Source: Cinnamomum chago (taxonomy: Eukaryota; Streptophyta; Magnoliopsida; Laurales; Lauraceae). Taken from it: a stretch of DNA of 64,000 nt. Numbering within the stretch: the first letter of the stretch is position 1; every line of letters starts with the position of its first letter. This document shows positions 1,773 to 61,734 of this stretch, one piece after another. The notes under the pieces were generated by a model that was given only the letters and a program-made list of their open reading frames with translations, did not search any database and was not told the DNA's origin. The stretch is from contig CP142458.1 in NCBI GenBank assembly GCA_038049695.1, positions 41,819,501 to 41,883,500 of the forward strand, in the 5' to 3' direction. The translations under genes and the position numbers were made by a program.

Positions 1773-1864
1773 CTACATGACATCGTCAGCACGCCACTCA
1801 ACTAGAGGTTGCGGCTCTCCTACCGCCTCCTCTGGCTCCTCCTCAAAGAAGCCGGCAACGGGAC
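1773..1864 (-). other. Conserved 92-nt LTR acidic ORF tail (copy 1)
   Basis: From the AG of a TTGGTACTCAG acceptor-like site to a TAG stop is exactly 92 nt, a length shared by all seven full copies. The frame (two bases then 30 codons) gives an acidic peptide with E-E-E near the start and E-W-R-A-D-D-V-M at the end. The reading frame is also open upstream of the acceptor here, but not in the copy at 13506, which favours use as a terminal exon. Its start codon is unknown. Confidence 0.5.
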
Positions 1865-3035
1865 CTGAGTACCAAAGCAAAGGATCAGACACGACGGTCT
1901 GGCAAGAGAAAGCAAGGATACAACAACATATAATAGGGGAAAATACCTTGAAAAGCATATAAATCTGTTTAAGCAAGAACTCTTATAAAACAGATAAATC
2001 ATTTGCTATAAAACAAGTAAACAAGATGAAACATAAGAGGTAACCAAGGAAATCGGGAATAACAAGGTGGCAATCACATAAAGCTAAGTCCTCTGTCACT
2101 AATGTGACAACAGTATCACGGGACGTTGATCTCAGTCACACAAGGTGAGGAGAAACAACGTATACATATATACAATATAATAATACGGGAACGGGACCAC
2201 GGTAGCGAACCGGGTATCGGGACGGGGCCACGGTGATAAATCGGGCATCGGGATCCAAACTGCAGCTGGCGGGACGGGAGAGGGATATCCAAGTCAGTGG
2301 ATCAGACTGACAAGGTATCCAAGCTTAGTGATGCCGACACATAGGATAAAACCAATCGAGACATATATGAGTAAATCAAGTACAATAAATAAACGGGGAA
2401 AACGGGGGTGCTCAAGGCACACTGTCATCTCATGTCGGGCAATACATATCTGGACAAGTCAATACTACTATCATGCTTTCGGGAAAACGATTCATGTCAA
2501 GTAATGCTTGGAAATAGAGAAATATGATGAACTATACCAATTCGGGAAAGATGATGATTTAAAGATCTATTTGAGTGGATAGGGGTCCCGTATGTCGATT
2601 ATAGATATAACTTGGTACTCCTTGAGTTTGAAGACATTCCGGGCTCCTTATGCACTCTTACGATTTTCAAAACTTAAAATGAGCTTATGGTTATAACTAG
2701 ATTTCATACTAGGAAAATCAAGGTTATAGACGGTCCATCCTAGGCATGACGTTAATTCGGAAACATCGACCAACCTATTCAGTCATCGAAAGGAATGGAA
2801 TTCGCGATAACCAAGGCAAAAGACTTATATTTGGATATAAAGAAGTTACCGCGTCATTCCATCCCGTTCAAGATTGAAACGGATTGAACTTCGATGCCAC
2901 CAAACTAGCCGTGAGAAGCGTCGGCTCAAGACATCTCACCCATAGTCCAATTAGTCCAAAAAGGGTAGCCAAGGTCCCACCTAGCACTAAGGAAAAATAA
3001 AAATCTCAAAATCCACCGGACTCAAACTGAGTCCA

Positions 3036-3180
3036 CCGATCGATCGGACCTCGGCCAAAATTTTCTGAACAGGGACCGATCGATCGGCCGAAATTTCTAC
3101 ACAGGGCCCGATCGATCGGTCCAAAAACCCTTACAGTTACTGACAGACCGATCGATCGGTCTGCACGTCCGATCGATCGG
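3036..3180. repeat. Array of five CCGATCGATCGG palindromes
   Basis: Perfect 12-bp palindromes start at 3036, 3076, 3108, 3148 and 3169. The copy at 3148 extends to 18 bp with its flanks. The spacers are 9-28 bp and unrelated. The array lies between the predicted LTR splice donor and acceptor. The same array occurs at 62889-63013. Confidence 0.9.
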
Positions 3181-4403
3181 TCCTGGGCGCAGTGCAGGTC
3201 CGGGACTTGGATTTTTCTCCTTTTTGTTCCTTTCTTTCCAACACTTCAACAACCACAATTAACTATAAACAAGATGACTAAAACCCATGCTTCCAAGACA
3301 TTAAATGAGGCTATCAAGAGATATAAATATCATTTATTGCAACCATGAAAACTCAATAAAAGCAATCAATGAAAGCATAAAAATCCATCAATGTTTCACC
3401 AAATCATTTGAAACTTAAAAAACCTCCAAACATTCACTTGCCTCAAGTCTTCAATTAATGATATTAAGCTCTATCAAGTCCTCCAAGAAAATGGTCCAAG
3501 CTACAATGCAAAATCCCCAAATAAAGCCCTAACATGGGTCAAACAATATAATGACTAGGAAACCTTTCAAAAATGGAAATGTAGCTTAACAAGAACTAGA
3601 GGAACACTAATCTAGGAGATGGGGATGATCTCTTACCTTTAAGGTCCTCTAATGGCAATGATGAGCTCAAAGAAGGTCTTGTGATGGAGGGTCCTCTTCA
3701 CAAATGGTATCAATGGAATGCTTGCAAGATGAGGAAGAAGAAGATGATCTCCATTTTGAGTTTGGTGCAAGATTGGTGAGGCTTTGAGATGGAGAAGCAA
3801 GAAGAAGGAGAAGAAAACCAAGGAAAACCCTAGACTCTTCTCTTGGGCTGGAAAATGGAGAATGAATTGCAAATGGAGGGTGAGTTCTTCTTTGCTAACA
3901 AAGGGAAGGTTGGGTCCCACAACTTAAGGAGCTAAATAGGTTGAAATCATCTCCCTCGGGTCCTCGGATGAATTCGACGAAGAAGGAAGAAATGATCGTC
4001 GAAATATCTAGTTTCCAAAAAGTCTATGTTTTGCGGGTTTCGGGAATATCAAGTTTTGGGTACGGATTTTGTGTGCAATGACTATTTTGCCCTCAAGGCC
4101 AAGAATTCGGGTTTCGGGATCTCAAACGAACACGGGATCAACATCAAAGTTGTCGGGATCATTAAAACGAGTAAAACGGGATTAAAATCATACGTGTAAA
4201 AATCTCCGGTAAATCATCAATCATATGCAATGACATGAAAAGGAACCCCCAAAGGGCCCTACTAGCACAAAGCCAATCAAAATCCCCAAAACTATATCAG
4301 AAGCTATTCCAAACCCATCTTAACCAAAAATCACTAATCAAGCTTAGTACTAACACGCAACTTAATTAGTACTAATCGGGTTCACTCGGGTCGGGGTCTT
4401 ACA

Positions 4404-4573
4404 AAGATGAATAAGACCTTGAAGTGCCTCTCGAACATCTCCAAAAGCTGCAGTCGACATGATGGTGTTATGCCCCCGTCTCCTCCAGATTCATCTTAGA
4501 CCATAGGAGGGTGTTTTTTCACTTTTTGTGGGGATAGTGATGGGTAGTGATAGATTGTTTTTCTTGATGTATT
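4404..4573. other. Unclassified 170-bp segment between two LTRs
   Basis: This is the only piece of the left half that matches none of the other repeats here. On the minus strand an ATG (complement of 4456-4458) opens 18 codons running straight into the gypsy LTR. It may be a fragment of the insertion target, possibly an older element's gag. I do not recognise it. Confidence 0.35.
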
Positions 4574-6888: not shown

Positions 6889-6890
6889 TT

Positions 6891-10991: not shown

Positions 10992-11004
10992 GACCAAATG
11001 CTCT

Positions 11005-11017: not shown

Positions 11018-13096
11018 TGTTAGACCCCAACCCAGGTCTGATTTATTTAGCGTCGTTTAAGCTGATCGTTAGTCTCTAACTGGAATTAGGAGCCCTTTTA
11101 TCTTATATTTTATAGTTTGACTAGATTTTTCTAGCTTTGGAGAATTTTGAGAGCCGTTGAGCTTGATTGGACCCGTCCCGGGGTGGCCCATGTGATGGGT
11201 GTTCGTGTGGGAATTTATCTTTTATTTCAAAAAAATCTAATTTTTACTCCTCTTGATTTGTTTTATTGACCTCAACAATTTTTATGTTCCTTTCGTCCGA
11301 ATTCAAAACCCAGAAATCCCGTTTTTCGAGAAAAAGGGCAAAAACTGACGTTTTACACCAAATCTATGCATAAATTTCGATATTTTCAAATCATGAGGAA
11401 AATATACTTTTTGAAAACTAGATTTTTCGACGATCAACTTTCTCTTTTTCGTCGATCTTGTCCAGGACCCACAAGGTGCTGTTCCAGCCATTTGAAACTT
11501 TTGAGCCAGTGGAGCCCACTCTTCACTTAACTCAAAACCCAACTCACGTTGCTTTCTCCCTCATTCTTCCTTGTGCTGAAACCTACTAACATCTAAGAAA
11601 AAAAGTGGTTTTCCTCTCCCTCCTTCTCTCTTTTGCATGTCCATGAAATCTTGCCCAAAGTGAAAATCTGGTTACACATTTCATTTCCTCATCTCCTTGG
11701 CTTTTTAAAGAACCTATTTGTGAAAGATTTCTGCTGGACCCATCTTCCTCTTCAAGTTGTTCTTGCTGGCTTTTGCACTTACAGGTAAGACCTGATTTTC
11801 TCCTCTTAGCCATGGGTTCTCTAGACCCTTGGGATGCTTTCCATCATGCATGCAAGGAGGTTCATGGAGAACTCCTTTCATTTTCAAAATGATTGAGTTT
11901 TTGAGATGTTTTCCATGGGGATTATAGTAGAGTGGAGGTCTTGCTATAACAGAGGAGTGCTTGGAGTGTGAGTGGAACCCATTTTGACTCAAGGCAAGTG
12001 AATAATCAGATTATGAAATGCATTCTATGGAAAATTTGTTTCTTCCTTAAAATTCTTGTTTGTAACACAAATGCTTTCAAATGGGTTCTTTGTTTTTGAG
12101 GTTTGATTTAGGAATGTTTTAAGTGGATGATTGATGCTATATTTCCACATGTTATCTTTTACAGCAACATGAATCTTCCTCATTATATTACTATTTTTAA
12201 GTTAGTAGGAATACATTTCAGAAATTATTCTTTTTGTGGTTATACCATGTTTATAAATTTGAATTGGTTATTGGAATGAGTGTGGATATTTTGGGGTTGA
12301 TTGGAGTGTTTGGAAATTAATGGAAGCTAGGGTTGGTGTAAAGAGCATGGTGGAGGTTAATGGAAATGAAATAGGGTTAAGGACAAGAAGAAGAGCAAAA
12401 TTCTTGCTGGAAGAACGAGCCCAAACAGCAGCTCAGCTCGCTCAAGCAGGTTGGCTCTGTCTGGCGCAGGAGCAGGAGAAGCTATGCCCACTCGAGCGAG
12501 CTTGGGCCCGCTCAAGCGAGCCAGCTTCTGGGAGGCTCCGTTTGAGCGGAGGTTCCCTCGCTCGAGCGGACCTAGACTCTGTCCTGGGGACTGTTTTCTA
12601 CACATTATTGTACTGTTTTGAGTTGCATACCTCCCCTAAGGACTCATTAGTGTGGAACAAGGGAAATATGAGCCTCAAACACTTGTATGATGGAAATCTA
12701 AGGGGAAATAAGGAGGATTATTCGATGGTCGAATTACCAGGGGATTGCTATAAGCCTCGATGTGCACTATATGTTCTCAAATGTCGGAGATCTTCAAAGG
12801 CACCAAATCCTTCATTCATAGACCGACGTTGAGGAACTAAATGCATAACGAGACGACCCTAGGTAAGCCAATCAACCACGCCACTCAACTTCATTCCAAT
12901 GTTAGTAGATTTATATGTTTCCTTATAAATCGATTCGGAATAGCTTTGAGTGGTTCGCCACGTTTGAAAATATCAGTAACACTACTCATTTGATTCACCT
13001 CATATTTTGTCTAATTGTACTTTGATAGAGTAGTCCTCTTATCGATTTGAAATGTACTATGAGGATTTGTCTTGTATCGATTCAGAATTTGGTCGA
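11018..13096 (+). repeat. Tekay 3' LTR, left part (rest at 23835-24824)
   Basis: Begins TGTTAGACCCC after the polypurine tract. It holds the conserved U3 block (11330-11470), a leader with donor AG/GTAAGA at 11785, and a degenerate GCTCGAGC array. It is cut at 13096 by a minus-strand Tekay element and resumes at 23835. Both parts total about 3069 bp, matching the family length. Confidence 0.87.
12439..12569. repeat. Degenerate GCTCGAGC palindrome array
   Basis: About five CGCTCRAGCG-like units, only one perfect (12559-12568). Others carry C-to-T changes, for example CGCTCAAGC. The mutated state suggests an older copy of the array seen at 16318 and 14581. Confidence 0.75.
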
Positions 13097-13505: not shown

Positions 13506-13597
13506 CTATACGACATCATCAGCACGCCACTCAACTAAGCGCTGATGTTCACCAACCGCCTCCTTTGGCTCCTCCTCAAGGTAACCGGCACCAGGAC
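13506..13597 (-). other. Conserved 92-nt LTR acidic ORF tail (copy 2)
   Basis: AG acceptor to TAG stop is again 92 nt. The peptide ends V-E-W-R-A-D-D-V-V. In this copy the same frame has a TGA a few codons upstream of the acceptor, so the peptide could only be joined to upstream coding sequence by splicing. Confidence 0.5.
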
Positions 13598-14842: not shown

Positions 14843-16317
14843 TGTCCAGAAACTGATTCCGGAACAGTTCTCCTCCTCTCTTTCTTTTCCTTTTACAATC
14901 CATTTTAGCTCCTTTATATACACCAAGAGAGGGGTTCAAAACTTCATCCAAATCAACATCAATTTTCCAACAACATCCATTTTAACCTCCTTCAACATAT
15001 CACAGCCAAAAACAAGGAAGAGAGGGAAGGAGATCACTACACACAAGAGTACATTCGAGATAAAACAAGAGAAAATTAAATTCTATGAACCAATATGTTA
15101 GACCCCGACCCAGACCAATTTGATTAGTGTGCGATTAGTATGTGTTTAGTCCTAAGTGGGTTTAGTTGTCTTGGGTTAGAAGTAATTAGTTTTAGTCTTG
15201 GACATAGCTTTGGGAATTTTGAGAACGTTTAGTACTAGTCTGACACACTCAAGAAGGCCTGAGTGCACGTGTAAGCTTGGGAGGATCGTATCGATTTCTG
15301 TGTATTTGTGATTTTGATTTCAATTGGATGATTTTACTATGTGTTACAACTTTTTTTTTTAGCCCATTCATGTTTGAAGCCCAAAAGCCCAAACTCTGGC
15401 CCAAAAAGGGTAAAGTGGTCTTTTTGCACAAATCTGGACATAATTTTTGAGATCTCAAAACCATGTCAAAAATATACTTTTTGGAAACTAGATATTTCAA
15501 GGATCGTTTTATCCTTCTTCGTCGAAGTCATTCGAGGCCCCCAAGATCATGTTTTCGTCATTTCAAAGTTCAAAGTCATTGGGCCCCATTGTCATCACTT
15601 AAGCCTAACCCTCATCTCTTTCGTTCATTTCCCCAAAATTCCTGCAACTTTCTTAACGTAGGGCTGAAAATCCCTCTTTCCTTTCCATCTTCCTCACCTT
15701 GCATGATCTAGCTAGAGATCTCCAAATAAAATTCCAAGACCGTCATCTTCTTCCTCTACTTGCAAGCTTTCTATTGGTACAAATTTCTTGGAGTTTCTTG
15801 TGGGACAAGCTCTACATTTTCCTCGTCTCTTCTTGTTTGGCCATTTCTAGGTAAGAGCTTCAACCCATACTTTTCATGAAGTCTTTTTAGTTCCTTAAAA
15901 ATCTTGTTTTTCATGTTACAAAGCCCTTTGGTAAAATGGGTTTCTTGTTTTCAAGATTGAGTGAGTTTTGTGTGGTTTTCATGGGTTTTTTGTAGTTCTT
16001 TGGATTAGTGAGTGAAGTGCTTAGAGAAGTGTGAGACATCTTGGACTAAGGCAAGGAATCTCTATAGGCAATGTTTCATGTGTATTTTTGATTTCATGGT
16101 TGTTCTAGAAATTGTGCATATGAATTTGTTTATAAATTTTATGATCTTGTTTTTCATTGGATTGGATGTTTGAAATGGTGAAAATGAACCCTTGGTGAGC
16201 ATGAAGGCTCAAGGGATTGTATGTGATTTAAGGAGGAGAAGAAGGAGAGAAATGTGTGGGAATTTGTACAAGAGAAAGGCTTTTTCTGCACTCAGCGAGC
16301 ACAGGCAGAAGCTATTC

Positions 16318-16546
16318 CGCTCGAGCGACCTTTGGGTCCGCTCGAGCAACCAAGCCACTGCTTGGTCCGAGCGCAGACAGAGAGCTGTCCGTTCGAGCGA
16401 CCTTTTGTCCGCTCGAGCGAACTGCCCATTGTCTAATCTAGAGCAAGACAGAGAGTTGTCCGCCCGAGTAACCTTATTGTCCGCTCGAGCGAACTGTCTC
16501 GCTCGAGCGATGTGTCAATTCCTTACAAGTTTCGCTCGAGCGAACC
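16318..16546. repeat. Array of GCTCGAGC palindromes in solo LTR
   Basis: Perfect CGCTCGAGCG at 16318, 16410, 16482, 16500 and 16533, plus degenerate units near 16338 and 16390. It lies between the donor at 15851 and the acceptor at 17432. The 135-codon ORF crossing it (16192-16599) is probably only the absence of stops in GC-rich repeats. Confidence 0.9.
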
Positions 16547-17432
16547 TGCCAGATTCAGGAAGAAGAATTGTTTCATTTGGGTATTTTCTTGAAGGTTGAA
16601 AAACTATACTATGTTAAGGGTTTTGACTTGACATTGTGTAAATGGAACTTCGAAATGCAACCCAACTTCGGGGACACCAATTCTTGTATATTCCGACATT
16701 TGGGGTCCCAATTACACAAAGGTCAATTAGTAGCCTTAACACATGCTTGTTAGATTTCGTATTTTGAATTTCCGTCTTGGTACGATAAGTACCATCGTGC
16801 ACTCATTTTGAATTTCAAGCATAAGCTCGTTTTGAAGATTTGTTTCAAGAAAAAGGGGATCACTTCCTAAGAGTGTTATGCATATTAATTATGCCTTTTC
16901 CTAGTCGTGTTTGTTGTGTTTGATAAGTGATTTTCCCCCTTCTTATCTCGACATGTTTTGATAGTGTTTCGCGTGTTTTGTGCATTCATGAATTAAGTGA
17001 ACACCACTGAGCTTGGACTACCCTTTCAGTTTGATCCACTGTCTGGGGGTCCTTAAACATGTGGACTGTCTGCAGACTAGTCGTGTATTTTATTACACAT
17101 CGTGCGTGTCCGGTTTCGCGGCCGGAATCCCCGTATATGTGGGAATTATGTCGTGATTATATTATGTATATCGTGCTTGTTGTGCGTGCTTGCTCTTTTC
17201 ATTATATATATGATAGAGAAAGGATGAGCTCTTTGTGGAATGTAACTATTCATGATATTATAAGTATGCATGTTAGCTTTACTCGTATTTTGAAATGTAT
17301 CTTAGTCTTGTAACTATTTACAATCCAGCAAAATGTCTTTATATGTTCTTTAAAGGTTTACTATTTTATGTTCATACCTAAATTGATTACCTGTCAAACC
17401 GTTGTGTTTGACCCTTGTTTGTTGGTGCCCAG

Positions 17433-17524
17433 GTGCAGGCGACGTTACCTTTGAGGAGGAGCGTCTGGATGAGGCTTTTGAGCCAACCCCTGTTAGAGAG
17501 TGGCAGCCCGACGATGTCAACTAG
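17433..17524 (+). other. Conserved 92-nt LTR acidic ORF tail (copy 3)
   Basis: Follows TTGGTGCCCAG and ends at TAG 17522-17524. It reads F-E-E-E early and R-E-W-Q-P-D-D-V-N at the end. Codon by codon it aligns with the minus-strand copies without a gap despite many base changes. Confidence 0.55.
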
Positions 17525-19004
17525 ACGTCGGGCGGGTTCTTGATTTTTGTCATTATGTCATGGGTTTCTTTTGTTATTTTGAGAATTGTATTGGCCTCTC
17601 ATGGGTTGTAACTAAAACTTAACTTACTTTTGAGTTAGTCTCATAACTTGAATCTTGATGGGAATGCCATTTTAACTTCTTCCTTTGATACTATGCCTTG
17701 TTATTATTTGTCATAGCACTTAAGGATTTGTTGGTGCTTATCTTGATGTGATTTGCTACACGCTTCCGCATACTTGATCATGTGAGTCAGATTCCGCGTG
17801 TCTTTGGGAATCCTCACCGCGGGAACCTGTGGGAAAACATAAACAATCGTAAATTCAACTCGTCGCGGGCCCGGGATCCGTTCCGGGGTCGCGACACAAT
17901 ACATCTCTATGGCAATAAATGCACCATCAAGGCTCTTCATGAGCATTCATTTCAAGTCAAAGTAATAAATAAACATGTATGGAAAAGCAATGAAATCAAC
18001 CACATTTCTATAAAACCATTTAAAACTCAAAGAAATCAATTCATCCACTTGCCTTAGGTCTCTAATAAGCAAATCAAGCTCTAATCACCTCTCCAAGCCA
18101 AGAGTCCACGCTATGAACCAAAAAATCCCCAAAAACACACCCTAGATGGGTCAAAACAAGAAATAGAAAGGGAAACCTTACAATAATAAAAATGGAACAT
18201 CTTCAAGGTCAGAGAAACACAAATCTAAGAGATGGGGAAGGTTGCTTACTTGTAGGTTCTCTAAATGAACAAAGTGAGCTCAAAGAGTATCTTGAAATGG
18301 AGGGCCTTCTCTAAAAATGGTATCAATGGAAAGCCATGGTGGTGAGGAAGAAGATGATGATCTCAACCTCTCAATTTGTGCAAGATTGGTGGTGGATTTG
18401 GTGATGTAAAACAAGAGAAGAAGGAAGAAAATGAAACCCTAGGTGAAGAGTGGAGTTGAGCTAGAAAAGGAAAAAGGGAAGGGGAGAGTTCTCTTTATAT
18501 AGAAGATGGAGTTGGGTCCCACCACTAGAATTATTCAAGGGCTGAAATCATGTCTATCGGGATCTCGGATGAATTCGACGAAGAAGGAAGAAATGATCAC
18601 CGAAATATCTAGTTTCCAAAAAGTATATGTTTTGCGGGTTTCGGGGATATCAAGTTTTGGGTACAGATTTAGTGTAAAAATATTGTTTTGCCCTCAAGGC
18701 TAGGAAATCAGTTTTTGGGATCTCGGACGAGCATGGGATCAACATAAAAGTTGTAGGGATTAACAAGATAAACAAAACGGGATAAAAACACAAATCAAAA
18801 TAATTTCGAAAAATCCCCTAAGTAAACGCAAAGTCACAAAAGGAACCCCCAAAGGGCCCCACTAGTACCAAAGCACTCAAAATTCCCCAAAACTATATCT
18901 AAAGCTATTCCAAACCCAACTTAGTCAAAGACTACTAATCACGCTTAAGACCAACACGCGACTTAATTAACACTAATCTGGTTCTCTCTGGTCGGAGTCT
19001 TACA

Positions 19005-21214: not shown

Positions 21215-21275
21215 CAATCCCCAAAGAATGGTTAAACGTTCCCAAAATATTATGTCTCTCATAGCAATCGAATGT

Positions 21276-21367
21276 TTATACGACATCATCAGCACGCCAC
21301 TCAACTAAGCGCTGCGGTTCACCAACCACCTCCTCTGGCTCCTCCTCAAGGTAACCGGCAACGGGAC
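21276..21367 (-). other. Conserved 92-nt LTR acidic ORF tail (copy 4)
   Basis: Same 92-nt span; the stop is TAA (complement of 21276-21278) where the sister LTR has TAG, so the stop is kept through a base change. The peptide ends V-E-W-R-A-D-D-V-V. Confidence 0.5.
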
Positions 21368-22216
21368 CTGAGTACCAAAGAGTGGGTCAAACACAACAGT
21401 TTGGCAAATGGGTGAAAAGACATAACAAATACATTTACCTTTAAAAGTATCTAAACGTGTTCGATCAATAACTTTCATAAAAGAAACGAATCATTTATTG
21501 AAACCATAAATGTAGTATAAAACATGAATGGGTATCCAAGGAAATCGGGAAACAAGCAAGATGGCAACCACACATAGCTAAATCCTCTATCACCAAAGTG
21601 ATAGAGCAAGATCAAGGCGTTGACCTCAGTCATCGTAGTGAGGAGGTACAACGAAATATACATATGCATATAATATACTATACATGACCACGGTAGCGAG
21701 CCGGGCATCGGGAACCACAGTAGCAATATGCGGCATCGGTACAAGACCACGGTAAATAAATCAAGTACAAGTAAATAAACGGGCGGGACGGGGGTGCTCA
21801 AAGGCACAACTGTCATTTCATGTGGTGCAATGCACTTCAAGACAAGTAACTATTTCAAGTGTAATTTTGATGCTTTCGGGAAAACAAGGCATATAGTATA
21901 AATTTCGGGATCAGTAAAGTACAATAAACAATCGGAGTTTCGGGTTCAGGATTGCTCAAATTGAATAGGGATCCCGTATGTCTAAATAAATAAAGGCTTG
22001 GCACTCCTTGAGTTTGGGAACATCCCGGGGTCCTTATACACTTTGGCTTTTTCAAGACTTCAAACGAAATCTTGGTGATGTGGTTTTCTTCATGAATGGA
22101 TGTTCAAACATAGGAACGGTTCTTCTCATTGAAATAGGGCTCTCAATAGACCTTTCTCAAACATTTAGACATTTTATTAGTGCTCCCAAAAACAGTCCCA
22201 GGTGAACAGTACCCAT

Positions 22217-22478
22217 CGCTCGAGCGGACTATGGGTTTGCTCGAGCGGTCAGCTCTCTGGAATGGTTGTCTAGGTGGGTTCACTCGAGCGAAGTTGAGGT
22301 CGCTCAAGCGAACTCATCCAGTAGGTGGTTGGCTCGAGCGAAGATTCAATTCGCTCGAACTAATCACTCTCTAGAACGAGTTCTGGGAGGGTTCGCTCTA
22401 GCGGTGAAGGGTCCGCTAGAGCGAACTGTCCTCTGGAAAGACTCGAACCCTTTTCTGGACAATTCGCTCGAACGAACT
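22217..22478. repeat. Array of GCTCGAGC palindromes, sister of 14581-14842
   Basis: Perfect CGCTCGAGCG at 22217, then about nine units with small differences from the sister array, including one additional perfect unit near 22280. Confidence 0.88.
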
Positions 22479-23834
22479 GTCCAGAAACTGATTCTTGGAC
22501 AGTTCTCCTCCTCTCTTTCTTTTCCTTTTACATTCCCTTTTAGCTCCTTTGTATACACCAAGAAAGGGGTTCAAAACTTCATCCAAATCAACATCAATTT
22601 TCAAACAACATCCATTCTAAACTACTCCAACATATCACATCCAAAAACGAGGAAAAGTCTGAAGGAGATCACTACACACAAGAGTACATTCGAGATAAAA
22701 ACAAGAGAAAATTAAATGTTATGAATCAATACATCTCTATGGCAATAAATGCTCTATCATGGCTCTTCATGAGCATTCATTTCAAGTCAAAGTAATAAAT
22801 AAACATGTATGGAAAAGCAATGAAATCAACCACATTTCTATAAAACCATTGAAAACTCAAAGAAATCAATTCATCCACTTGCCTTAGGTCTCTAATAAGC
22901 AAATCAAGCTCTAATCACCTCTCCAAGCCAAGAGTCCAAGCTATGAACCAAAAAATCCCCAAAAACAAACCCTAGATGGGTCAAAACAAGAAATAGAAAG
23001 AGAAACCTTACAATAATGAAAATGGAACCTCTTCAAGGTTATAGAAACACAAATCTAAGAGATGGGGAAGGTTTCTTACTTGTAGGTTCTCTAAATGAAC
23101 AAAGTGAGCTCAAAGAGTATCTTGAAATGGAGGGTCTTCTCTAAAAATGGTATCAATGGAAAGCCATGGTGGTGAGGAAGAAGATGATGATCTCAATCTC
23201 TCAATTTGTGCAAGATTGGTGGTGGATTTGGTGATGTAAAGCAAGAGAAGAAGGAAGAAAATGAAACCCTAGGTGAAGAGTGGAGTTGAGCTAGAAAAGG
23301 AAAAAGGGGAAGGGGAGAGTTCTCTTTATATAGAAGATGGAGTTGGGTCCCACCACTAGAATTATTCAAGGGCTGAAATCATGTCTATCGGGATCTCGGA
23401 TGAATTCGACGAAGAAGGAAGAAACGATCACCGAAATATCTAGTTTCCAAAAAGTATATGTTTTGCGGGTTTCGGGGATATCAAGTTTTTGGTACAGATT
23501 TAGTGTAGAAATATTGTTTTGCCCTCAAGGCTAGGAAATCAGTTTTTGGGATCTCAGACGAGTACGGGATCAACATAAAAGTTGTAGGGATTAACAAGAT
23601 AAACAAAACAGGATAAAAACACAAAACAAAACAATTTCGGAAAATCCCCTAAGTAAACGCAAAGTCACAAAAGGAACCCCCAAAGGGCCCCACTAGGTAC
23701 CAAAGCACTCAAAATTCCCTAACTATATCAAATGCTATTCCAAACCCAACTTAGTCAAAGACTACTAATCACACTTAAGACCAAATCACAACTTAATTAA
23801 CACTAATCAGGTTCTCTCGGGTCGGGGTCTGACA

Positions 23835-24824
23835 GTGGGCACCACTAAGCTTGGGTTGCCTAGTCGGGCTGATCACCTGACTTGGGATCCTCAACTATTT
23901 CACCAATTGCAACTTGGACACTTTGATTGTTTGTCATTAGTTCCGCGGTGGATTTTGATTGCTCCGACCATTTCATATGGCAACAGTTATTGATTGTTCC
24001 GGCCATTTCACATGGCAACGGTTATTGATTGCTCCGGCCATTTTATATGGCGATGGTTATTGATTGCTCGTGTTACTTCGGTAATAGGAGAGTGTAGCTC
24101 AATGTGGATTGCCAATGGTTTGTCCGGTTCGTACTACTCTTTCAAATGTTCTCATTGTAAATTATTTAATTTGTTAATCACTTTATTTTATCATTACTTA
24201 TGTTTCAATTCTCAAATGTATTATTATGATTTTATAATGTTTTTGCAAATACTTGTCATTCTATTATCTGCTTTATTGGCTTGCCAGACCGTCGTGTCCT
24301 ATACTCTCTTGTTTGGTGCCAGATGTCGACCCCGCCGCCTTTGTGGCGGAGCGCGAGGAGGAGGCGGTTGAACCGCCGGTTGCTCGAGAGTGGCAGCCCA
24401 ACGATGTCATCTAGACATCGACATGGGTGATGGGACGCGTATCACATTTTTGGATGGATGTTTATTTTGGGAACTTGTTACTTAAGCCTTTGTTGGCTTT
24501 ATTTTTTAGGAATTGTATAACTTTAAACTTACTTTTGGTATCTGTACAACTTAAACTTTAACTTTGGGGCTTGCTTATGAATATTTCTCCTTTTGATGCG
24601 AGGCTTGAATACCTTATACACCATTGATCTTTAGTTTTATGTTTGGTACATGCTTCCGCGTATATCCGTTCATTGTGAGATTGATTGTGATGGATCGTAT
24701 TGGAAATCCTCACCGCGGAAACATGTGGGAATTAACAAGAGCGCGGGCAAAATTTTCTGGCCCGCAGCACCGCGGCCCTGGATTAGGGACCTGGTCGACT
24801 AGGTCTCGGTCCGGGGGCGTGACA
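23835..24824 (+). repeat. Tekay 3' LTR, right part (continues 11018-13096)
   Basis: Its first bases continue the sequence cut at 13096, judged by comparison with 26400-26430. It contains three ~35-bp repeats with TTATTGATTG and TGGCAACGG (about 23955-24075), the 92-nt tail and the U5 block (24707-24733), and ends GGGGGCGTGACA. Confidence 0.82.
24323..24414 (+). other. Conserved 92-nt LTR acidic ORF tail (copy 5)
   Basis: The most diverged copy, still exactly 92 nt from TTGGTGCCAG to TAG 24412-24414. The peptide keeps the acidic run (E-R-E-E-E-A) and the ending R-E-W-Q-P-N-D-V-I. Confidence 0.5.
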
Positions 24825-30435: not shown

Positions 30436-30673
30436 CCATGCTCATGCCTAAATTGATTATCTGTTAAGCCATCATGTTTGACACTTGTCTATTTTGGTGC
30501 CCAGGTGCAGGTGACGTTGCCTTTGAGGAGGAGCGTCAGCAGGAGGCTTTTGAACCACCCCCAGTCAGAGAGTGGCAACCCGACGATGTCAACTAGACGT
30601 CGGGCGGGATCTTGAGTTTCGCTTCATCTTGTCTTGGGTTCTTTTTGTTTATTTTGGAAATTGTATTGGCCTT
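30436..30673 (+). repeat. Tekay LTR fragment, right part of 24825-26788
   Basis: Continues the host LTR after the SIRE insertion and carries the acceptor and 92-nt tail. It is cut at 30673 by a copia LTR; its U5 end is not in the window. Confidence 0.85.
30505..30596 (+). other. Conserved 92-nt LTR acidic ORF tail (copy 6)
   Basis: TTGGTGCCCAG acceptor to TAG 30594-30596 is 92 nt. The peptide contains F-E-E-E and ends R-E-W-Q-P-D-D-V-N, identical at the end to the copy at 17433 although this LTR has a different palindrome type. Confidence 0.55.
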
Positions 30674-39057: not shown

Positions 39058-42000
39058 ATGGCTTCAAGTAAGTTTTTTTTTCTCTTTTTTTTTTTTTTGC
39101 AAGAAATTCCATGTAAAGAAAGTTTCATCATCATTTTTTTTTCTTTTTTTTTTGCACGTGTTGTTTTCCATTTTTTTTTTACACGCCCTTTTCTTTTCTT
39201 TTTTTTTCTTCTCTCTTTTTTTTTTACTGTTGTACGGACATGTCCGTACAGCCTGGGCCGTACGGCTTGTGGGCCAGCCCAGAAATTTTCTTTTCTCTTT
39301 TTTTTTCTCTTTCTTTTTAGGAAAGAAAACTTTCTTTTCCCCTCTTTTTGCTCTCCATGATAATGAGATTTATGCAATCCAAGATGCTCATGCATTCCCT
39401 TTTTTTTTTTATGCATCAAGATAGAAGGCTAGAATTTCTATGCTAAGCCAACATGAATTTTGACTTAGACAAAGTTTGATTTTGACCAAATTGGGTTGGA
39501 ATTGGTCAAATTTTGTCAAGGTTTTCCTAGCATCTAGTGCATGATGATTTTCTTTTATGCATGATTTTTGGTAAATTGAATTGGGAGCATGATGATGATG
39601 CACACCTGGAAATCTTTTGCAAGGCACGAGATTTGAAGCTCGCAGCAATGTTGAGCTCTTTCTTTAGTCTTGCGGGGGTTTCAAGGAGCTTTTTGCAAGT
39701 TTTGGGATTTGAAGCTCGCAGCAATGTTGAGCTCTTTTCCGGTTCTTGCGGAAATTTGAGAAGACTGTCTTGATCTCACAGCAATGTTTGAGTTCACGTC
39801 TTCTTTGAGAATCCTTCATTGATCATGAGGTCGCGGCGATGTTGAGCTCATCTTCAGGCTTCCTTTCTTTTCGGGGTGATTCCCTTTTCTTCGGAATTGC
39901 CCCGGAGTCATGCCAAAATTTCGCTAGGATTTTTTTTTTAGCAAAATTCTGTCATTCTGTTGATTGATTTCTTTCTTTCAATCTTTGCAGGCAGTTCCTC
40001 CAAAACGAACAAGGGTAAGGAACCAGTTACCAATGCACCTCGTCGATCTGCCAAATCTTCCAATGCGGCCGTACAGCAGGCCTGGGAGAAGGTCCAGTAT
40101 GTGGAGAGAAACTTGGAAGAGTGTGACTCGCTCAACCGAGATGAGATGAGACAGCGACTGATCGCTTTCAAGGATGAGGAGCTCTACAAGATTATGGTAA
40201 GCAATCGTCCTTGGGTCATGGACGATCAGAGCGTTATGCCCAAGCCTACTTTTTTCTTTGGTGATGCAGCCCCTGATGATTCGTCATACCAAAGGAGATG
40301 CTTTCAATTCTCTTACACAGCTGATGGTGAGGAGAGAACCATTTCTACCCGATCGCCTTTGGATCGTACTATTTCGATCATGAGTCTTTCTCCCACATGC
40401 TCTAAGAGAGAAGATCCTCCAAGCTGGGTGAAGAGGACCAATGTGGTCAAGACCGGGGTTTTTGTTGGCGGTCCTTCTGGTTATGCAGAGAAGTCGCCTG
40501 TCCGTCTAGACATGTTGATGCCGGCCAGCGGCTACCAAGGATCTGATCATCCATCGGTTGATTTGAGACCGGTGGGCCTTGGCATTTTCAGGGGTGATGG
40601 CAGCAATTGGGTAAAGCCATTTCGTCTTCGTGGCCGCTTCAGTGCAGACTCAGGCTGGGAGTCGTGGACTGATCACATCCTGCAGATCGGCGGTGCCATT
40701 CTGAAGGAGGCCGAGATTTTTGATGCGGTTCGCGCTTTTAGGCAAACCGCAGTTTTCTCTGATGAGGCTTTTATGGCCATGCTGGAGTCCTTCCTTCCAC
40801 AAACCAACACCTTCATTGTTACGAATGGTGAGATTGGTTTTTCTTTGAAGGAGCTGAGTGCCATTACCGGGTTGCCCATCCTCGGCAAACTCTATGAGGA
40901 ATTTATGCCGATCGACAGCGTCCTTGAGGAACAGTCCGAGGAGTTCAGGCTTTTGTACTTTCAGCTTGTCGCCTTCTATGATTTTTTGAAGGAGAAGGAG
41001 GGCTTGAAAGTCCGGTGCAGCAATTGGAAGAATTTTGGCTCTTTATCTCCCAACTTCTTTGGCAGTGGAGAATCTTCTGATAAGAATCTGGCTTCGAAGA
41101 AGATCTCCGTTATGCGAGAAAATCTGAAGGAATTCTTTGCAAGCACAAGCGCCATTTGTTCCGACATCGCGCTGCGAAGAGATCTCGCTATGTACCTCAC
41201 TTACTGGCTAGGTGAGGCTGTCTTTGTTGGAGGAGATGGGACGCACATCAGGCCGCATTGTATTTTTCCGGCTTGTCAGATGGCGTTTGGAGAGCAGCTA
41301 GCTTTGGTGCCGGCTCTTTACTCCTATTTATGTACCGAACTTCAGGCTGCTGCTTTCTTGGTCCGGTTTGGGCTCCCCATGAACAGAGTATTTTCAGCCC
41401 ATATTTTCTATTCGTGGTATGTGTACCACTGTCCTGGCTTTCACCGTTTAGGCGTTGCACAGGATGATGACCCTTTTATGATTCGGTTGGCTAGGGGAAA
41501 AGCCGTTTCCGATTCACTTCTGTCCACCCGCTTGAGAATCCGACGATTCAGGGATGTCGAGATTGGGCAATCTTCAGTAAAGCTTTCTCCAGATTTGCGG
41601 AAGAAGGCTTTTGATTTTGGTGTCTCCCGTGATTCCACCAGGGCAGGATCGGGAAGACACTATTCTTTGACCAACGCAGAGAAGAGGTGGCTTTTAAACA
41701 TACGTGTTGGCACGATGGTGTACCGCAGACATCTTTTTGTTGACATCCAGCCGTATGTCCCTTCGCGTTTTGCGTTGTAGTTAGGCTTCTCTCAAGGCGT
41801 TGTTGGAGCGCCTTCGAGCATGGTGAAGCGTTTTGGAGGTTTGCAGGACGGGAGAAATGCATGGGCTTTCTATAGTGCGGAGGACACTACTGCCATGATT
41901 TCCTATCCTGAGTTGCCCACTTTCCGGACTACTGGCTTCACGAAGTGGTTCGTGGAGAGCTTTGCTGTGTACCGAGGGCTTTCCGAGAAGGAGCTGAATG

Positions 42001-56620: not shown

Positions 56621-56758
56621 ACTGGAAATAAACTCAAAAGAAAAAATTTCCAAGAATCCCATCTCATGTGGTTTTTTTTTTTAGATTCAAGATCCAACAT
56701 AGGCCACCAACTAAAAAGGAGCCAAAGAATCCAAGCATCGTGTTCTCAAATGAACAAG

Positions 56759-56776
56759 GTCCCACCGGGTGTGCCA
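56759..56776 (-). promoter_or_regulatory. Primer binding site of Tat element
   Basis: The minus strand reads TGGCACACCCGGTGGGAC, beginning three bases inside the 5' LTR. A tRNA 3' end ending in ...GTGTGCCA is implied. I cannot assign the tRNA with confidence. Confidence 0.7.
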
Positions 56777-56779
56777 GCT

Positions 56780-59396
56780 TGATGGTCCCGGCTTTTCTCT
56801 TTTTCCAAAGCTGCCTCCGCCCCGGGGCTGACGGGGTACGGTGGAGGGAAAGAAAGGAAAAGCGGGCATCAGTTTTTTTTTGTACGGGTATGCCAGATTT
56901 TCTATTCTACTTGGAATTTAGAGTGGTGATCCGGAGATTCACCTTCACAAGTAGAAAAGGAAATCAACTTTTTTCCATCTTTCCATTGCACACATATTTT
57001 TAAAGAAAAGAGACAAGGTTTGTTTTTTGAATGCCGTGAGAGGCGGTTTTCTTTGTTTGCCGTGAAAGGCGATTTACAAATCTTATCAATAATGAAAGAC
57101 AAGAGATGTGATTTTTTTTGTCTCTTTATAAAAAAAATACAATGCAACAGAAAAGAAAGAAAAGGAATCTAACTTCTCATGCGATTGTGGGGGACCCGTT
57201 CAGATCGACGGTCGCGAGTTATGTATGGACTCCGCCATCGTCCTTCAAATGAGAACTTTAATGCTTGATTTCTTGGCTTGGCTCCAACCTCAGATTTTTA
57301 GAGGATAAGGACCAAGGTAAGGTCCTATATCCGGTAAAAAGCCGAGTAGACGGGCTGAAAAGCCGCATCTAGCCATGTTGGATAGAAGGAGAGGTGGCCT
57401 TTGGGGGGGGTGGCCCCCCAAGGGGCTTTGATCACCTTGTAGTGCTTGTTGTAGTAGAGTTTTCTTGAAGGAGCAGAGTTATAGAGATTTCTCCGAGGAT
57501 TTTTGAATGATTTTCTGGCGATTTTTCTGGATCTTTGAATGATTTTCTGGCGATTTTTCTCTGGATCTTTGAATGATTTTCTGACGATTTTTCTGGATCC
57601 GTTTCTCTTGGAATGGCCTCCTATTTATAGACATTTGGTAGCCATTTAGGAGAGTTTATGAGCATTTATGGTATTAATGCTCATGATGGGAGGAGTTACA
57701 AGTTTTTAATTACTTATTTTGTAACTCCTTTTTCCTTGAATTTGATTGGCCGATGGAGAGTAGTGGGCGTTTAATCGCCTTTAATCTCCATGATGACGGG
57801 CGTTTCATGATTTTAATGTCATGATTACTTGGACTTGTAACTCCCATTTGCTTGCTTCTGATTGGGCCGTTCAAAATAATGAGTTAATGACCGCATTAAC
57901 TTGCCATAAACGGGTCATTTAACTTCATTAATTGATTGCCTGGGCGCTTGAAGAGTCGCGGGCCGTGCCGCGTCCTTTGGGTTTCTTCTTGCGATGATCA
58001 TCAATGGACCCACATACCATTTGATGTCGGATGGTGATCCAATGTCAAACATTGGTTGATGTCAGCGGGCCAGCAACATCTGTCCAGTCGATTTCACGAT
58101 CGGGCGGGCAGAAAGGGTGCTTTCTTGGTTAGCCGTTTGACGATCTTGAGGTGTCCGATGATGATCTAATGATTCCAGTGATGGATCCGTGATGTTGATG
58201 AAGATCGACGGATATCATGCATAAAAAATCAGATTTTGGAAAAATCACAGGGGCCAATCAACTCGAAACGCGAAAAATACCCGAAAAACGGGGTTTTTGG
58301 GCGAGGTCTGGCGGCCCGGACCTCCATGGTCGCCGGCGACCATGGGCCTTGGCCCATTTTTTTGGCCGCCTTTCAGTCGCTTTTTCTTCGCCGTTTTTCG
58401 TCCGTTTTTGCTTTTGTTTTCTCCTGCATCTTTCTTGGAATTTCCTCTCATTTATTGGCTGGATTTCCCTCAAGAAAACCTGACGAGAAGCCGTGCAAAT
58501 CGGATCACAAAGTTTCCCATTTTCTGAAAAGCCGAAGACTTTGCTGTGGAGAACTGCCGATTTTTTTGTCAAGCGTCGAAACTAGGTCAAACGATGTCGG
58601 AATGACCTGAAATTCGACGTGTAGCTTTTTGAGCAGTAGACGAGACCAACCATAGGCTTTTGTTCAGGTTTTGAAGCCGTTTGGGGGCCCGCAAATGCTT
58701 GACTTGATTTCACTGCGAGGGAAATGTCGAGCTTTGACTTTCAGTCAAACGATGTCCGATTGACCTGAAATTTGATGGGTAGCTTCCTCATCAGTAGATA
58801 GGACCAACCATAGGCTTTCGTTTGAGTTTTGAAGCCATTTGGAGTCATGCAAACGCTTGCCTTTATTTCACCGCGAGGGAAATGCCGAGCTTTGAGTTTT
58901 GGTCAAACGATGTCCGATTGCCCTGAAATTCGACGTGTGACTCCCGCATCAGTAGATAAGACCAACCATAGGCTTTCGTTTGAGTTTTGAAGCCGTTTGG
59001 GGTCATGCAAACGCTTGCCTTGATTTCACCGCGAGGGAAATCCCGAGCTTTGACTTCCGGTCAAACGATGTCCGATTGACCTGAAACTTGACATGGAGCC
59101 TTTTGGAGGTATTTTGTAACCATCCGTAGGCTCTGATCGAAGATTTGAAGTCTTCGACACTGTCGCCGCCGGGAGCTGCTGCTCAGCTGTTGGAGAAGTG
59201 AAGTTAGGCCGAATGATGTCGGAATGGCCCGAAACTTCATGTGTACCTCTCTTTTGGTTGTTTTGAATGACCTTGCAGTTTTTGTTTGATTCTGACAAGA
59301 TCTGATGCTTGAAGTAGCGCCTGCCTATTTTTGGTAGGATGCGGCTCCGTGTAGCTTTTGGTGTGAAGAGGCAAAGTGACATTTTTGGTGTCAACA
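56780..59396 (-). repeat. Tat element 5' LTR (2617 bp)
   Basis: Paired with 35263-37895. The differences are mostly transitions, many at CpG. The TATA box is at 57621-57629 on the minus strand. The right end joins the copia RT at the target duplication GTTTC. Confidence 0.95.
57621..57629 (-). promoter_or_regulatory. TATA box, Tat 5' LTR
   Basis: TATAAATAG on the minus strand, the likely promoter for the gag-pol transcript, which would start about 30 bp to the left. Confidence 0.65.
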
Positions 59397-59904
59397 GTTT
59401 CCTCATAATCGATACCCATTTTCTGAGTATACCCTTTCGCAACAAGCCTGGCCTTAAAGGTCTCAACTCTTCCATCTGGTCCTCTTTTTCTGTTGTAGAC
59501 CCACTTGCACCCAATAGGTTTGATATTGGCAGGCAAGTCCACAAGTGTCCAGACCTAATTAGAGTACATAGACTCCATCTCAGCTTTCATAGCATCTTGC
59601 CAATGTCCCGAATCTATGTCATTGATTGCTTCGTCATAGTTGCAGGGGTCCTATTCCAATTCTTCCGGGATTGCCTCGTAAGACTCCCAAGAACGAGAAC
59701 CTATCAGGGGGCCTGATTATTCTCCCACTACGACGAGGCACTGGTGTAACTACTGGGTCTGGTAGGGGCGGTTCTTCCTCAAGTTCTATCATACTTGGAT
59801 TTGGAATTGATTATTCTTGAATCTCTTCCAAGATCACATTTTCTAAAGATTTCCGGTCCATCATATAATCTTCCTCCAGAAAAACCGCATTGGTGCTTAC
59901 TAGC
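59397..59904 (-). pseudogene. Copia pol, integrase end and RT start (broken)
   Basis: Continues the copia gene cut at 35262. The minus strand encodes the start of RT ([26 protein letters not shown]) and, further upstream, the Pro-rich integrase-RT linker (R-R-S-G-R-I-I-R-P-P). It contains in-frame stops. It ends at 59904, where a Tekay LTR is inserted; integrase core, gag and 5' LTR lie beyond the window. Confidence 0.88.
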
Positions 59905-61226
59905 TGTCGCGACCCCAGACCGGGTTACCGAGGTCCTAATCCGAGATCGGGACATTAATGAAGATGGTGGTGGTGTATGAATGGTTAAAAGGTAGAGTGT
60001 GTCAACAAGGTGCACACTGGGTTTTCAGGAGAAAAATGTTGCTCTCTGGAAAAGCAACCGCGACTATTCTGTTAGCTGGCGGTTAGCCGCCAGTCACCAG
60101 ACGGCTAGCGGATAGGTGACCGCTGGAAACACCCACTGTGTTCAGATTTGAGCCATTTTTCCTCCTCAAAACCATTCTCCTCACTTCCATTTAGTCCTTG
60201 CAATAAAACTGAGCTAAAAGCTCCTCCAATGCAACTATCTACACTTCTCCACAACTCCAATATGGGTTCATTCCATCACTTCCTCCATCAACATCAAATC
60301 CAATACAAAGAAAGAAAGAAGGAAACCATTTCACCATAGAGTACATTTAGGACAAAACAAGAGGAAATTAAATGCCATGCACCAATACCCTTCTATGACA
60401 TAAATGCACCATTAATACTCTATCATGAACATTTATTTCAAAGCAAAACAATAAATAGGCATGAATGGAAAGCACCAAAATCATTGAAAGCTTATAAAAA
60501 TAAAATTATCCACTTGCCTTAGGTCTCTAATAAGCAAACCAAGCTCTAACAAGCCTTCCAAGTCAATGGTCCAAGCTACAAGGAAAAACCCCAAAAAATA
60601 TAACCCTAAAAGAGTCAAAACATAGCATGGGAAGAAAGAAGCTTCAATAATAGGGATGGAGATTCCCTTAGGCTAGGAGAACACAAATCTAGAAGAAGGG
60701 AAGGATTACTTACTTGTAAGGTCCTCTAATGGCAAGAGTAAGCTCAATGAAGATCTTGGAATGGAGGGTTTTCTTCACAAATGGTATCAATAGAGAGCTA
60801 TGGTGATGAGGAAGAAGATGATGACCTCCATTTTGATGTTGGTGCAAGATTAGTAGGAGATTGATATGGAGAGAGCAAGAAGAAGAAGAGAAAAGTGGCA
60901 AGAAACCCTAGGCTCTCTTTTGTGCTGGAAAAAGGGAATGAGGAAGATGGGTCTCCTTATATAAGCAATGGAAATGGGTCCCACTACTTAAGACATTCAA
61001 GGGCTGAAATCTTGGCTTTCGGGATCTCGGATGAATTCGACGAAGAAGGAAGAAATGATCGCCGAAATATCTAGTTTCCAAAAAGTATATGTTTCGTGGG
61101 TTTCGGGAATATCAAGCTTTGGGTACAGATTTTGTGTGCAATGACTGTTTTGCCCTCAAGGCTATGAAATCGGGTTTCGGGATCTCGAACGGGGGCGAGA
61201 TCAACATGAAAGTTGTAGGGGTTAAT
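59905..61226 (-). repeat. Tekay LTR fragment, GGCTAGCC subfamily, internally deleted
   Basis: Starts TGTCGCGACCCC at the copia breakpoint. After about 110 bp of U5 it jumps to the palindrome array, so the U5 block, 92-nt tail and acceptor are missing. It continues with the leader and U3 block (61030-61160) and is cut at 61226 by another LTR. A TATATAAG-like site lies near 60956. Confidence 0.82.
60072..60127. repeat. Short GGCTAGCC palindrome array
   Basis: Four units (TTAGCTGGCGG, GGTTAGCCGCC, GGCTAGCG, GGTGACCG), partly decayed. Related to 25689-25970. Confidence 0.75.
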
Positions 61227-61642
61227 TGTCGCGACCCCGGACCGGGAATCCCAATCCGGGATCGGGACTAATTGGTGTGTAATGATTAAAGAGGATTATC
61301 TACATCCACAATATACAACTTATTTAATTTCCCACAGGTGTCCGCGGTGAGGATATCACAACCTTGCATGAATATTTCTTTTTAGTGCGGAAGCGTGTAG
61401 CAAATCAAATAGTTAGACTATCTCTAGTCATGCAAGCATTAACATCAAATATCAAAACTGTATCAGAATGAGCAATGATCTATAGCATGTTTCCCAAAAG
61501 TTGTTAAAGTTAGACAAAATATCATTTAGTTACATTCCCCAAAATTAGAGGCCAACAAAGGCCAATATTACAAAATAATAACCCAAAAGAATGGTTAATA
61601 AGTTCTCCCCAAAATGTTACGCCTCTTGTAGCAACCCGATGT

Positions 61643-61734
61643 CTACATGACATCGTCAGCACGCCACTCAACTAGAGGTTGCGGCTCACCTACCGCCTCC
61701 TCCGGCTCCTCCTCAAGGAAACCGGCAATGGGAC
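61643..61734 (-). other. Conserved 92-nt LTR acidic ORF tail (copy 7)
   Basis: Acceptor AG to TAG is 92 nt; the peptide ends V-E-W-R-A-D-D-V-M as in copy 1. Confidence 0.5.

What the first reader, a model, noticed from the sequence alone, without database searches (positions are those of the whole stretch)
1773..61734. Exactly 92 nt of conserved coding-like sequence in every intact Tekay LTR
Seven LTR copies (1773-1864, 13506-13597, 17433-17524, 21276-21367, 24323-24414, 30505-30596, 61643-61734), in both orientations and from diverged subfamilies, have exactly 92 nt between a CAG acceptor-like site and a stop codon. The flanks vary in length and sequence, but no copy has an indel inside. The 29-residue translation keeps an acidic run and an E-W-x-x-D/N-D-V ending while many bases change, and one copy swaps TAG for TAA. 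This suggests a selected terminal exon of an LTR-encoded peptide, which I do not know from descriptions of chromoviruses.
Basis: partly seen in the sequence, partly recalled or inferred. Interest (0 to 1): 0.87.

Follow-up and report, generated by a model that had tools for sequence, protein, structure and literature searches.

The report
Likely coding exon inside retrotransposon LTRs
A 92-base stretch inside the long terminal repeats of a plant's retrotransposons looks like the last, protein-coding exon of a spliced message, perhaps adding a tail to the particle protein Gag, but no RNA data were available to prove it.

Summary
In detail: 7 of 7 blocks are exactly 92 nt, open in one frame, end in TAG/TAA and follow CAG; so is an eighth, cut by the window edge. 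All 24 distinct blocks recovered genome-wide by anchored scan are 92 nt. In the diverged M2 family 35 of 40 hits show no net length change in the aligned part. The frame is under moderate purifying selection, while LTRs L3 and L4, probably of one element, differ neutrally. The block is a GC-rich island in T-rich sequence. Its CAG is the best-scoring acceptor in four of six LTRs; a conserved GTAAG is the best or second donor in all six. So 'selected terminal exon' is partly supported. 'LTR-encoded peptide' is not: no AUG exon of the right phase is shared by more than two of four L copies. The best fit is a 3'-LTR terminal exon spliced from the Gag-protease boundary, where a phase-1 donor lies in all 6 distinct loci in which the boundary was found. 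That would make a Gag-only mRNA, as BARE1 and EVD do by other introns. No joined copy was found in the genome. RNA reads are needed.

The parts
1773..1864 (-). 92-nt block, LTR L1 (PVAGFFEEEPEEAVGEPQPLVEWRADDVM*)
61643..61734 (-). 92-nt block, LTR L2
13506..13597 (-). 92-nt block, LTR L3
21276..21367 (-). 92-nt block, LTR L4 (stop TAA)
17433..17524 (+). 92-nt block, LTR M1
24323..24414 (+). 92-nt block, LTR M2
30505..30596 (+). 92-nt block, LTR fragment M3
1..44 (-). part of an eighth block; the rest lies left of the window
1363..4403 (-). LTR L1 (TGTAAGACC...GTCGCGACA), a 5' LTR followed by a PBS
1348..1359 (-). primer binding site TGGTATCAGAGC of L1
61227..64000 (-). LTR L2, continues to 64234; solo LTR with target-site duplication ATTAA
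13097..15095 (-). LTR L3, 3' part (its 5' part is 17897-19004)
17897..19004 (-). LTR L3, 5' part
21215..23834 (-). LTR L4, truncated at its 3' end
15096..17896 (+). LTR M1, solo LTR inserted in L3, duplication CAATA
11018..13096 (+). LTR M2, 5' part (3' part 23835-24824)
23835..24824 (+). LTR M2, 3' part with the block
3631..3636 (-). conserved donor-like GTAAGA of L1 (LTR position 768), best of 183 GTs in this LTR
11785..11789 (+). donor-like GTAAG of M2, best of 165 GTs
15851..15855 (+). donor-like GTAAG of M1, best of 204 GTs
1865..1888 (-). acceptor of L1: branch-like CTGAT (1884-1888), T-rich tract, CAG; best of 145 AGs in this LTR
1767..1785 (-). hairpin CGATGTC-ATGTA-GACATCG around the stop codon

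Best explanation
The block is a 3'-terminal coding exon built into the LTR. In the 3' LTR it can receive a splice from upstream, supplies 29 codons and a stop, and is followed by poly(A)-like signals. Shown from sequence: conserved acceptor, selected frame, few indels, exon-like composition. Inferred: the upstream partner is the end of gag. At the Gag-protease boundary (..VVEG) the codon GGT is split G|GTAAAC or G|GTACAC, a donor of phase 1. Joined to the block (CAG|GT..) it restores glycine and gives ..VVEG-PVAGFFEEEPEE..EWRADDVM-stop. The product would be Gag alone with an acidic tail, made from a spliced RNA without pol, while unspliced RNA makes Gag-Pol and serves as the genome. The copy in the 5' LTR exists only because the LTRs are copies of each other.
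For: Frame: dN/dS 0.14-0.19 for the four L1/L2 against L3/L4 pairs, 0.88-2.34 in the two other frames; 0.93 for L3-L4, probably two LTRs of one element. Fewer amino-acid changes than neutral simulations, P 0.003-0.027 for these four pairs, 0.02-0.055 for M1-M3. On 24 distinct blocks: 0.32 on internal branches against 0.97 and 0.86 in the other frames. Indels in 20 M2-family copies: 2 gap runs in 1840 nt of block against 19 in 2000 nt of flanks; the 20 were picked from hits to the block, see evidence against. Acceptor rank 1 of 123-156 AGs in L1-L4, rank 2 in M1, where rank 1 is 6 nt on and in the same frame. GC 0.55-0.65 against 0.30-0.37 in the 200 nt upstream, six LTRs. Homologous open frames in Cinnamomum and Persea; 105 of 120 listed keep a loose form of the C-terminal motif. 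Donor G|GTAAAC or G|GTACAC in all 6 distinct loci where the boundary was found, L and M types. Gag and protease are one open frame in L035. BARE1 is spliced at the start of its protease domain to make Gag only (section read).
Against: No RNA was available. The joined sequence (L type searched, M type not) was not found in the genome: 2 near matches against 3 in the reversed-pattern control; a spliced RNA may not be copied into DNA, so this is weak. Five other distinct loci gave no boundary match. In L041 and L063 the donor is not in phase 1 when counted from the gag AUG, because those copies have shifted frame upstream. In L types stronger donors of other phases lie in gag, and a G|GTA donor can arise from coding alone. 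The M2 acceptor ranks 13 of 149, and M2 lacks an exact branch consensus. The L-M pairs simulated do not differ from neutral. With codons 22-29 left out, P is 0.045-0.14 for the four between-element pairs tested. My 20 fetched M2-family copies left out both hits with a 1-nt loss, so the indel contrast is overstated; counting all 40 hits gives 5 length changes, 3 of them of 3 nt. No 135-430 aa protein with the block was found; a Gag fusion of about 460 aa is outside that range and was not searched.
Confidence: 0.4

Rival explanations
1. One reading: an LTR-only transcript starting upstream in the LTR is spliced into the block and makes a small peptide.
For: The LTR's best or second-best donor (GTAAG near position 767, all six LTRs with that part) and its acceptor would pair naturally in one LTR. 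L3 and L4 have a short AUG exon in phase ending AAAG|GTAAAT, their top-scoring donor. The young LTRs with the L1 block that I examined are solo, so an LTR unit would be the one expressed.
Against: The AUG exon of L3/L4 is not kept in L1/L2 (in-frame TAA in my reading). Only two other phase-compatible AUG exons are shared by a pair (L1/L2, L2/L4), both with weak donors. The frame entering from exon 1 has no AUG in L1, L2, M1 (my reading). No exon1-block junction among the 40 matches scored of 1979 candidates.
Confidence: 0.15
2. The block is kept for RNA-level reasons: an exon with purine-rich splicing enhancers (GAGGAGGAG) and a hairpin around the stop codon; no protein is made.
For: A hairpin of 7 bp can form around the stop in five window copies and of 6 bp in L3; 94.6% of cells pair in 37 distinct copies. 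The bases just after the stop are also largely kept.
Against: Covariation is not above shuffles: two pairs with a change on both sides, reached by 235 of 500 shuffles. L4 breaks two pairs and its predicted fold lacks the hairpin. It does not explain the frame-specific substitution pattern.
Confidence: 0.22
3. Gag's first codons supply the start: L-type gag has ATG CCT CCA C|GTAAGA, a phase-1 donor, giving a 33-residue peptide MPPR-PVAGFFEEE...DDVM.
For: The C|GTAAGA donor at codon 4 is present in 6 of 6 distinct L-type loci with a gag start; phase fits exactly.
Against: M-type gag reads ATGCCTCCAAGA (ATGCCTCAAAGA in L041) and lacks this donor. Junction not found in the genome, 0 matches with up to 3 mismatches.
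Confidence: 0.1
4. A relic: a terminal exon of a former additional ORF of Tekay elements, now decaying.
For: Tekay elements of other plants carry additional ORFs upstream of gag (passages of PMC11728184). Eight of 20 M2-family copies have an in-frame stop or lost the final one, and four of the 24 distinct blocks have an in-frame stop.
Against: Selection is seen between subfamilies, and the identical young L1-type blocks are intact.
Confidence: 0.08

Closest known systems
BARE1 of barley (Ty1/copia), spliced Gag-only RNA
   Same: Splice donor at the end of gag, stop soon after the junction, Gag-only product (abstract and one section of PMC3735527)
   Different: There the intron is 104 nt at the start of the protease domain; here the acceptor would lie in the LTR, the element is Ty3/gypsy, and the splice is predicted, not observed
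EVD/ATCOPIA93 shGAG of Arabidopsis
   Same: Spliced, shortened RNA dedicated to Gag (passages of PMC8892269 and PMC12786077)
   Different: EVD ends its short RNA prematurely within the element after splicing; here the terminal exon would be the LTR itself
5' additional ORFs (5'aORFs) of Tekay elements
   Same: Extra conserved sense coding in the same clade (passages of PMC11728184)
   Different: Those lie upstream of gag and are long (about 400 aa in the sunflower case); here only about 155 nt separate the start of the PBS from the gag AUG
MMTV sag, an LTR-encoded retroviral protein (recalled, not looked up)
   Same: Coding sequence inside an LTR
   Different: Animal retrovirus, long ORF, no sequence relation tested

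Membership tests
Tekay clade of chromoviruses | Ty3/gypsy domain order with RT-RNase H and integrase | tested here: met
   RT_RNaseH followed by integrase H2C2 in one frame next to L4; Tf2-1-like SH3 before M2
Tekay clade of chromoviruses | chromodomain after integrase | tested here: inconclusive
   Pfam called only the SH3_Tf2-1 part; the following stretch looks like a chromodomain by recall
Tekay clade of chromoviruses | RT phylogeny places it in Tekay | not tested
Tekay clade of chromoviruses | 5' additional ORF (carried by some groups only) | tested here: not met
   gag AUG about 155 nt after the start of the PBS in the loci aligned; 11 distinct gag starts seen within 300 nt of it
Gag-only spliced RNA (BARE1/EVD kind) | gag and pol in one frame | tested here: met
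   L035 open 462 codons across gag and into protease, to the end of the locus; pol beyond that not read
Gag-only spliced RNA (BARE1/EVD kind) | donor at the end of gag | tested here: inconclusive
   G|GTAAAC or G|GTACAC in all 6 distinct loci where the boundary was found; 5 distinct loci gave no match; not the strongest donor in L types
Gag-only spliced RNA (BARE1/EVD kind) | stop codon soon after the junction | tested here: met
   29 codons to the stop in frame
Gag-only spliced RNA (BARE1/EVD kind) | spliced RNA observed | not testable with these tools
   No RNA data held; the genome searches found no joined copy
LTR-encoded autonomous peptide | conserved start codon in the LTR transcript | tested here: not met
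   No phase-compatible AUG exon shared by more than two of L1-L4; M copies not scanned

The most novel reading that the evidence does not exclude
A Ty3/gypsy element has turned its LTR into the last exon of its own messages: the 3' LTR carries the C-terminal tail, stop and poly(A) site of a spliced Gag-only mRNA. A second acceptor just before the gag AUG removes the PBS-bearing leader from translated RNA, so RNA for translation and RNA for copying are separated by splicing into and out of the LTR.
Probability: 0.27. Interest if true: 0.76.

Novelty: new variant of a known kind. Interest (0 to 1): 0.6.

Why it matters
Plant Ty3/gypsy elements with a single gag-pol frame must make more Gag than Pol, and for chromoviruses how they do so is not settled as far as I know (recalled). 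A coding exon inside the LTR would be a direct answer and would explain constraint in a region usually treated as non-coding. It also predicts that solo LTRs carry a ready-made terminal exon that host genes could capture. The passages I saw on Tekay describe extra ORFs upstream of gag, none in the LTR (listings).

Tried and rejected
Chance open frame: rejected. Reading without splicing: rejected, because the frame upstream of CAG is not kept (two frames among homologs, 'CQTVVSDP' and 'ARPSCLTH'). Pol C-terminus as the upstream exon: a good donor at ..LLPE| exists in L3 and M2 but has the wrong phase (my reading). Exon 2 (about 903-962) as partner: stop codon at the junction in L1-L4 and M1. 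A conserved AUG near LTR position 1780: dropped, spacing varies. Whole-block RNA fold: predicted hairpins 1 and 2 use different registers in different copies. Related loci in viral and bacterial collections: none. Pfam: one match below its cut-off (E 0.07) for L1, none for M2. Rfam: two matches far below cut-off in the L1 LTR. Limits of the numbers: splice weights and poly(A) hexamers are recalled, not a trained model; the branch counts use one FastTree tree and Fitch parsimony; the script took the junction codon from block bases 2-3 instead of 1-2, which cannot create or remove a stop there but makes its last printed residue wrong.
Full report
What is there. The seven blocks lie in LTRs of Ty3/gypsy elements that start TGTAAGACCCC or nearly so and end GGGGTCGCGACA or nearly so. 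On the sense strand the LTR is 2.8-3.1 kb long; the block begins about 2.3-2.6 kb into it and ends about 370-430 nt before its end. L1 is a 5' LTR followed by a methionine-type primer binding site. M1 and L2 are solo LTRs with 5-bp target duplications. L3 and L4 are probably the two LTRs of one element, L3 being split by M1; their outer flanks show no matching duplication. M2 seems interrupted by that element (inference). The window lies in a genome of 1.06 Gb in 14 contigs. Protein matches to Cinnamomum and Persea point to the laurel family.

Check of the observation. Every block is 92 nt, offset 2, 29 codons and a stop. A 92-nt window without a gap is rare elsewhere in the same LTR pairs. 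The M2 block has 40 scored hits of 465 candidates: 35 without net length change in the aligned part, 3 short by 3 nt, 2 short by 1 nt. I fetched 20 of these, which by my choice include neither of the two with a 1-nt loss. Eighteen are exactly 92 nt; gap runs are 2 in 1840 nt of block against 10 in 1200 nt upstream and 9 in 800 nt downstream, Fisher P=0.0003. That contrast is overstated by the choice of hits and by fetching through the block itself. Eight of the 20 have an in-frame stop or lost the final one, and two lost the AG of the acceptor, so old copies decay. In the anchored scan 78 recoveries, 24 distinct, were all 92 nt. Of 30 PBS-linked loci, 25 have the canonical open block (18 of them from one tandem array), 4 have an in-frame TAG at 92 nt (three of them identical and close together), and 1 gave none.

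Selection. Nei-Gojobori counts give 0.14-0.19 between L1/L2 and L3/L4, 0.23 for M1-M3, 0.18 for L1-L2, and 0.93 for L3-L4. L-M pairs give 0.34-0.84; the two I simulated, L1-M1 and L1-M3, and M1-M2 and M3-M2 are not distinguishable from neutral. On the tree of 24 distinct blocks the ratio is 0.32 on internal and 0.47 on terminal branches, against 0.97/0.64 and 0.86/0.72 in the other frames. In the M2 family the pooled ratio is 0.45 against 0.61 and 1.02. Substitution rate in the block is not unusually low: for L1-L3, 27% of other windows are at least as similar. Few indels together with many silent changes is the pattern of coding sequence rather than of a protein-binding or purely structural element.

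Exon signals. All seven copies have CAG before the block. About 19-27 nt upstream six of seven have a branch-like YTNAY, then a T-rich tract. With recalled plant weights the block's AG is the best of 123-156 in L1-L4, second of 154 in M1 and 13th of 149 in M2. The conserved GTAAG near position 767 is the best donor in L1, L2, M1 and M2 and second in L3 and L4. Between them lie an acceptor-like TAG near 900 and a GC-type donor AAGGCAAGT or similar near 960. The block has 55-65% GC; the 200 nt before it have 30-37% GC and 43-47% T. Poly(A)-like hexamers lie 65-126 nt after the stop in L1-L3 and 46-92 nt after it in M1, others further on; M2 has only the far type (no shuffle control). This is how a plant terminal exon looks.

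Where is the start codon? Scanning donors in L1-L4 for an AUG frame of the right phase gave 14 alignment columns shared by two copies (12 by L3/L4, one by L1/L2, one by L2/L4) and none by three. The internal region was then read in loci fetched by LTR end plus PBS: 1371 such junctions exist in the genome, 30 loci were returned, mostly from one tandem array. Eleven distinct gag starts remain after 19 duplicates were dropped. All 11 have CTAA[CT] plus TTTTRCAG ending 4 nt before the gag AUG; this acceptor ranks 2-8 of 202-243 AGs in the ten loci scored. This suggests that translated RNA loses a leader intron. In the 6 distinct loci where the script found the Gag-protease boundary it reads GAA G|GTAAAC (M, 4) or GAA G|GTACAC (L, 2), phase 1 in the local frame; 5 other distinct loci gave no match. 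Counted from the gag AUG it is phase 1 in L035, L036, L038 and L059, but not in L041 and L063, which shifted frame upstream. The block needs exactly phase 1. This donor is the top or joint top donor in three of four M loci and second in the fourth, but not in L loci. L-type gag also has a phase-1 donor at codon 4, which M types lack.

Genome test for joined copies. Exon 1 to block: the 40 matches scored of 1979 candidates are all half matches. Gag-protease to block, L type only: 2 near matches, control 3. Gag codon 4 to block: none with up to 3 mismatches. Leader junction: not completed. A spliced RNA lacking the 5' part of the LTR may not be reverse transcribed to completion, so these absences say little about RNA.

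Relatives elsewhere. The searches returned 30 and 130 (120 listed) short open frames, mostly on short contigs of unnamed sources, with named hits in Cinnamomum kanehirae and Persea americana and one in a bacterial assembly (P0072). Of 120 listed, 105 keep a loose form of the EW..DDV motif, and several of the other 15 are cut short; of 96 that could be measured, the codon count from the acceptor codon to the stop is 30 in 54, 29 in 39, 28 in 2 and 26 in 1. These frames were found as proteins, so frame-keeping indels are favoured by the method. One Persea model, P0107, appears to enter a block exactly at this acceptor (my reading), which is a prediction by its annotators.

The hairpin. CGATGTC-NNNTA-GACATCG encloses the stop: 7 pairs in L1, L2, M1, M2, M3, 6 in L3, 5 in L4, whose predicted fold lacks it. 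It pairs in 94.6% of cells over 37 distinct copies, but changes on both sides are no more common than in shuffles. It may be real, yet it is not supported by covariation.

Literature. Gag-only spliced RNAs are known for BARE1 (abstract and one section of PMC3735527) and EVD (passages of PMC8892269), and spliced isoforms with Gag frames in sunflower (passages of PMC7730604). A review passage says plant LTR elements generally lack introns, with exceptions including Ogre and EVADE (PMC12786077). Tekay 5'aORFs are described upstream of gag (passages of PMC11728184). Passages of PMC6317226 on Tekay and splicing mention no LTR exon. Nine searches showed, in the listings and starts of abstracts, no report of a coding exon in an LTR of this kind; I read no further than the passages named.

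Verdict. A selected terminal exon is the most economical reading (about 0.6 for any coding terminal exon), Gag as its upstream partner about 0.4. The LTR-encoded peptide as first proposed is less likely because it lacks a start.

Noticed in passing
loci L009-L031 of the source genome, and window 15096-17896, 61227-64000: Of 40 hits with a block identical to L1, 23 were fetched with flanks; all 22 that could be delimited are solo LTRs with perfect 5-bp duplications, although nearest relatives among them are up to 99.7% alike. Such a share of solo LTRs among young copies seems unusual; the sample was chosen by block identity.
   Followed up: partly
source genome C1:39289315-39421752 (loci L041-L058): LTR-PBS junctions repeat every 7745 or 7873-7874 bases, 18 times: a tandem array of LTR-internal units.
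   Followed up: no
loci L034-L063, about 150 nt after the PBS: CTAA[CT] + TTTTRCAG ending 4 nt before the gag AUG in 11 of 11 distinct loci, suggesting a spliced gag-pol leader.
   Followed up: partly
window 35263-59396: A 2.6-kb repeat pair, 98.3% identical, flanks gag, RT-RNase H and integrase frames on the minus strand and a plant mobile domain (PF10536) ORF on the plus strand at 39942-41777: probably one large Tat-like element with an antisense captured gene.
   Followed up: no
LTR positions about 385-435 (window L1 near 3970-4020, minus): A stretch like ATACTTTTTGGAAACTAGATATTTCGACGATC is among the best conserved parts of the six LTRs aligned, upstream of the presumed start of transcription.
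   Followed up: no
P0072, annotated as Lysobacter sp. N42: A 93-residue protein in a bacterial assembly matches the plant LTR frame, so that contig is probably plant contamination.
   Followed up: no
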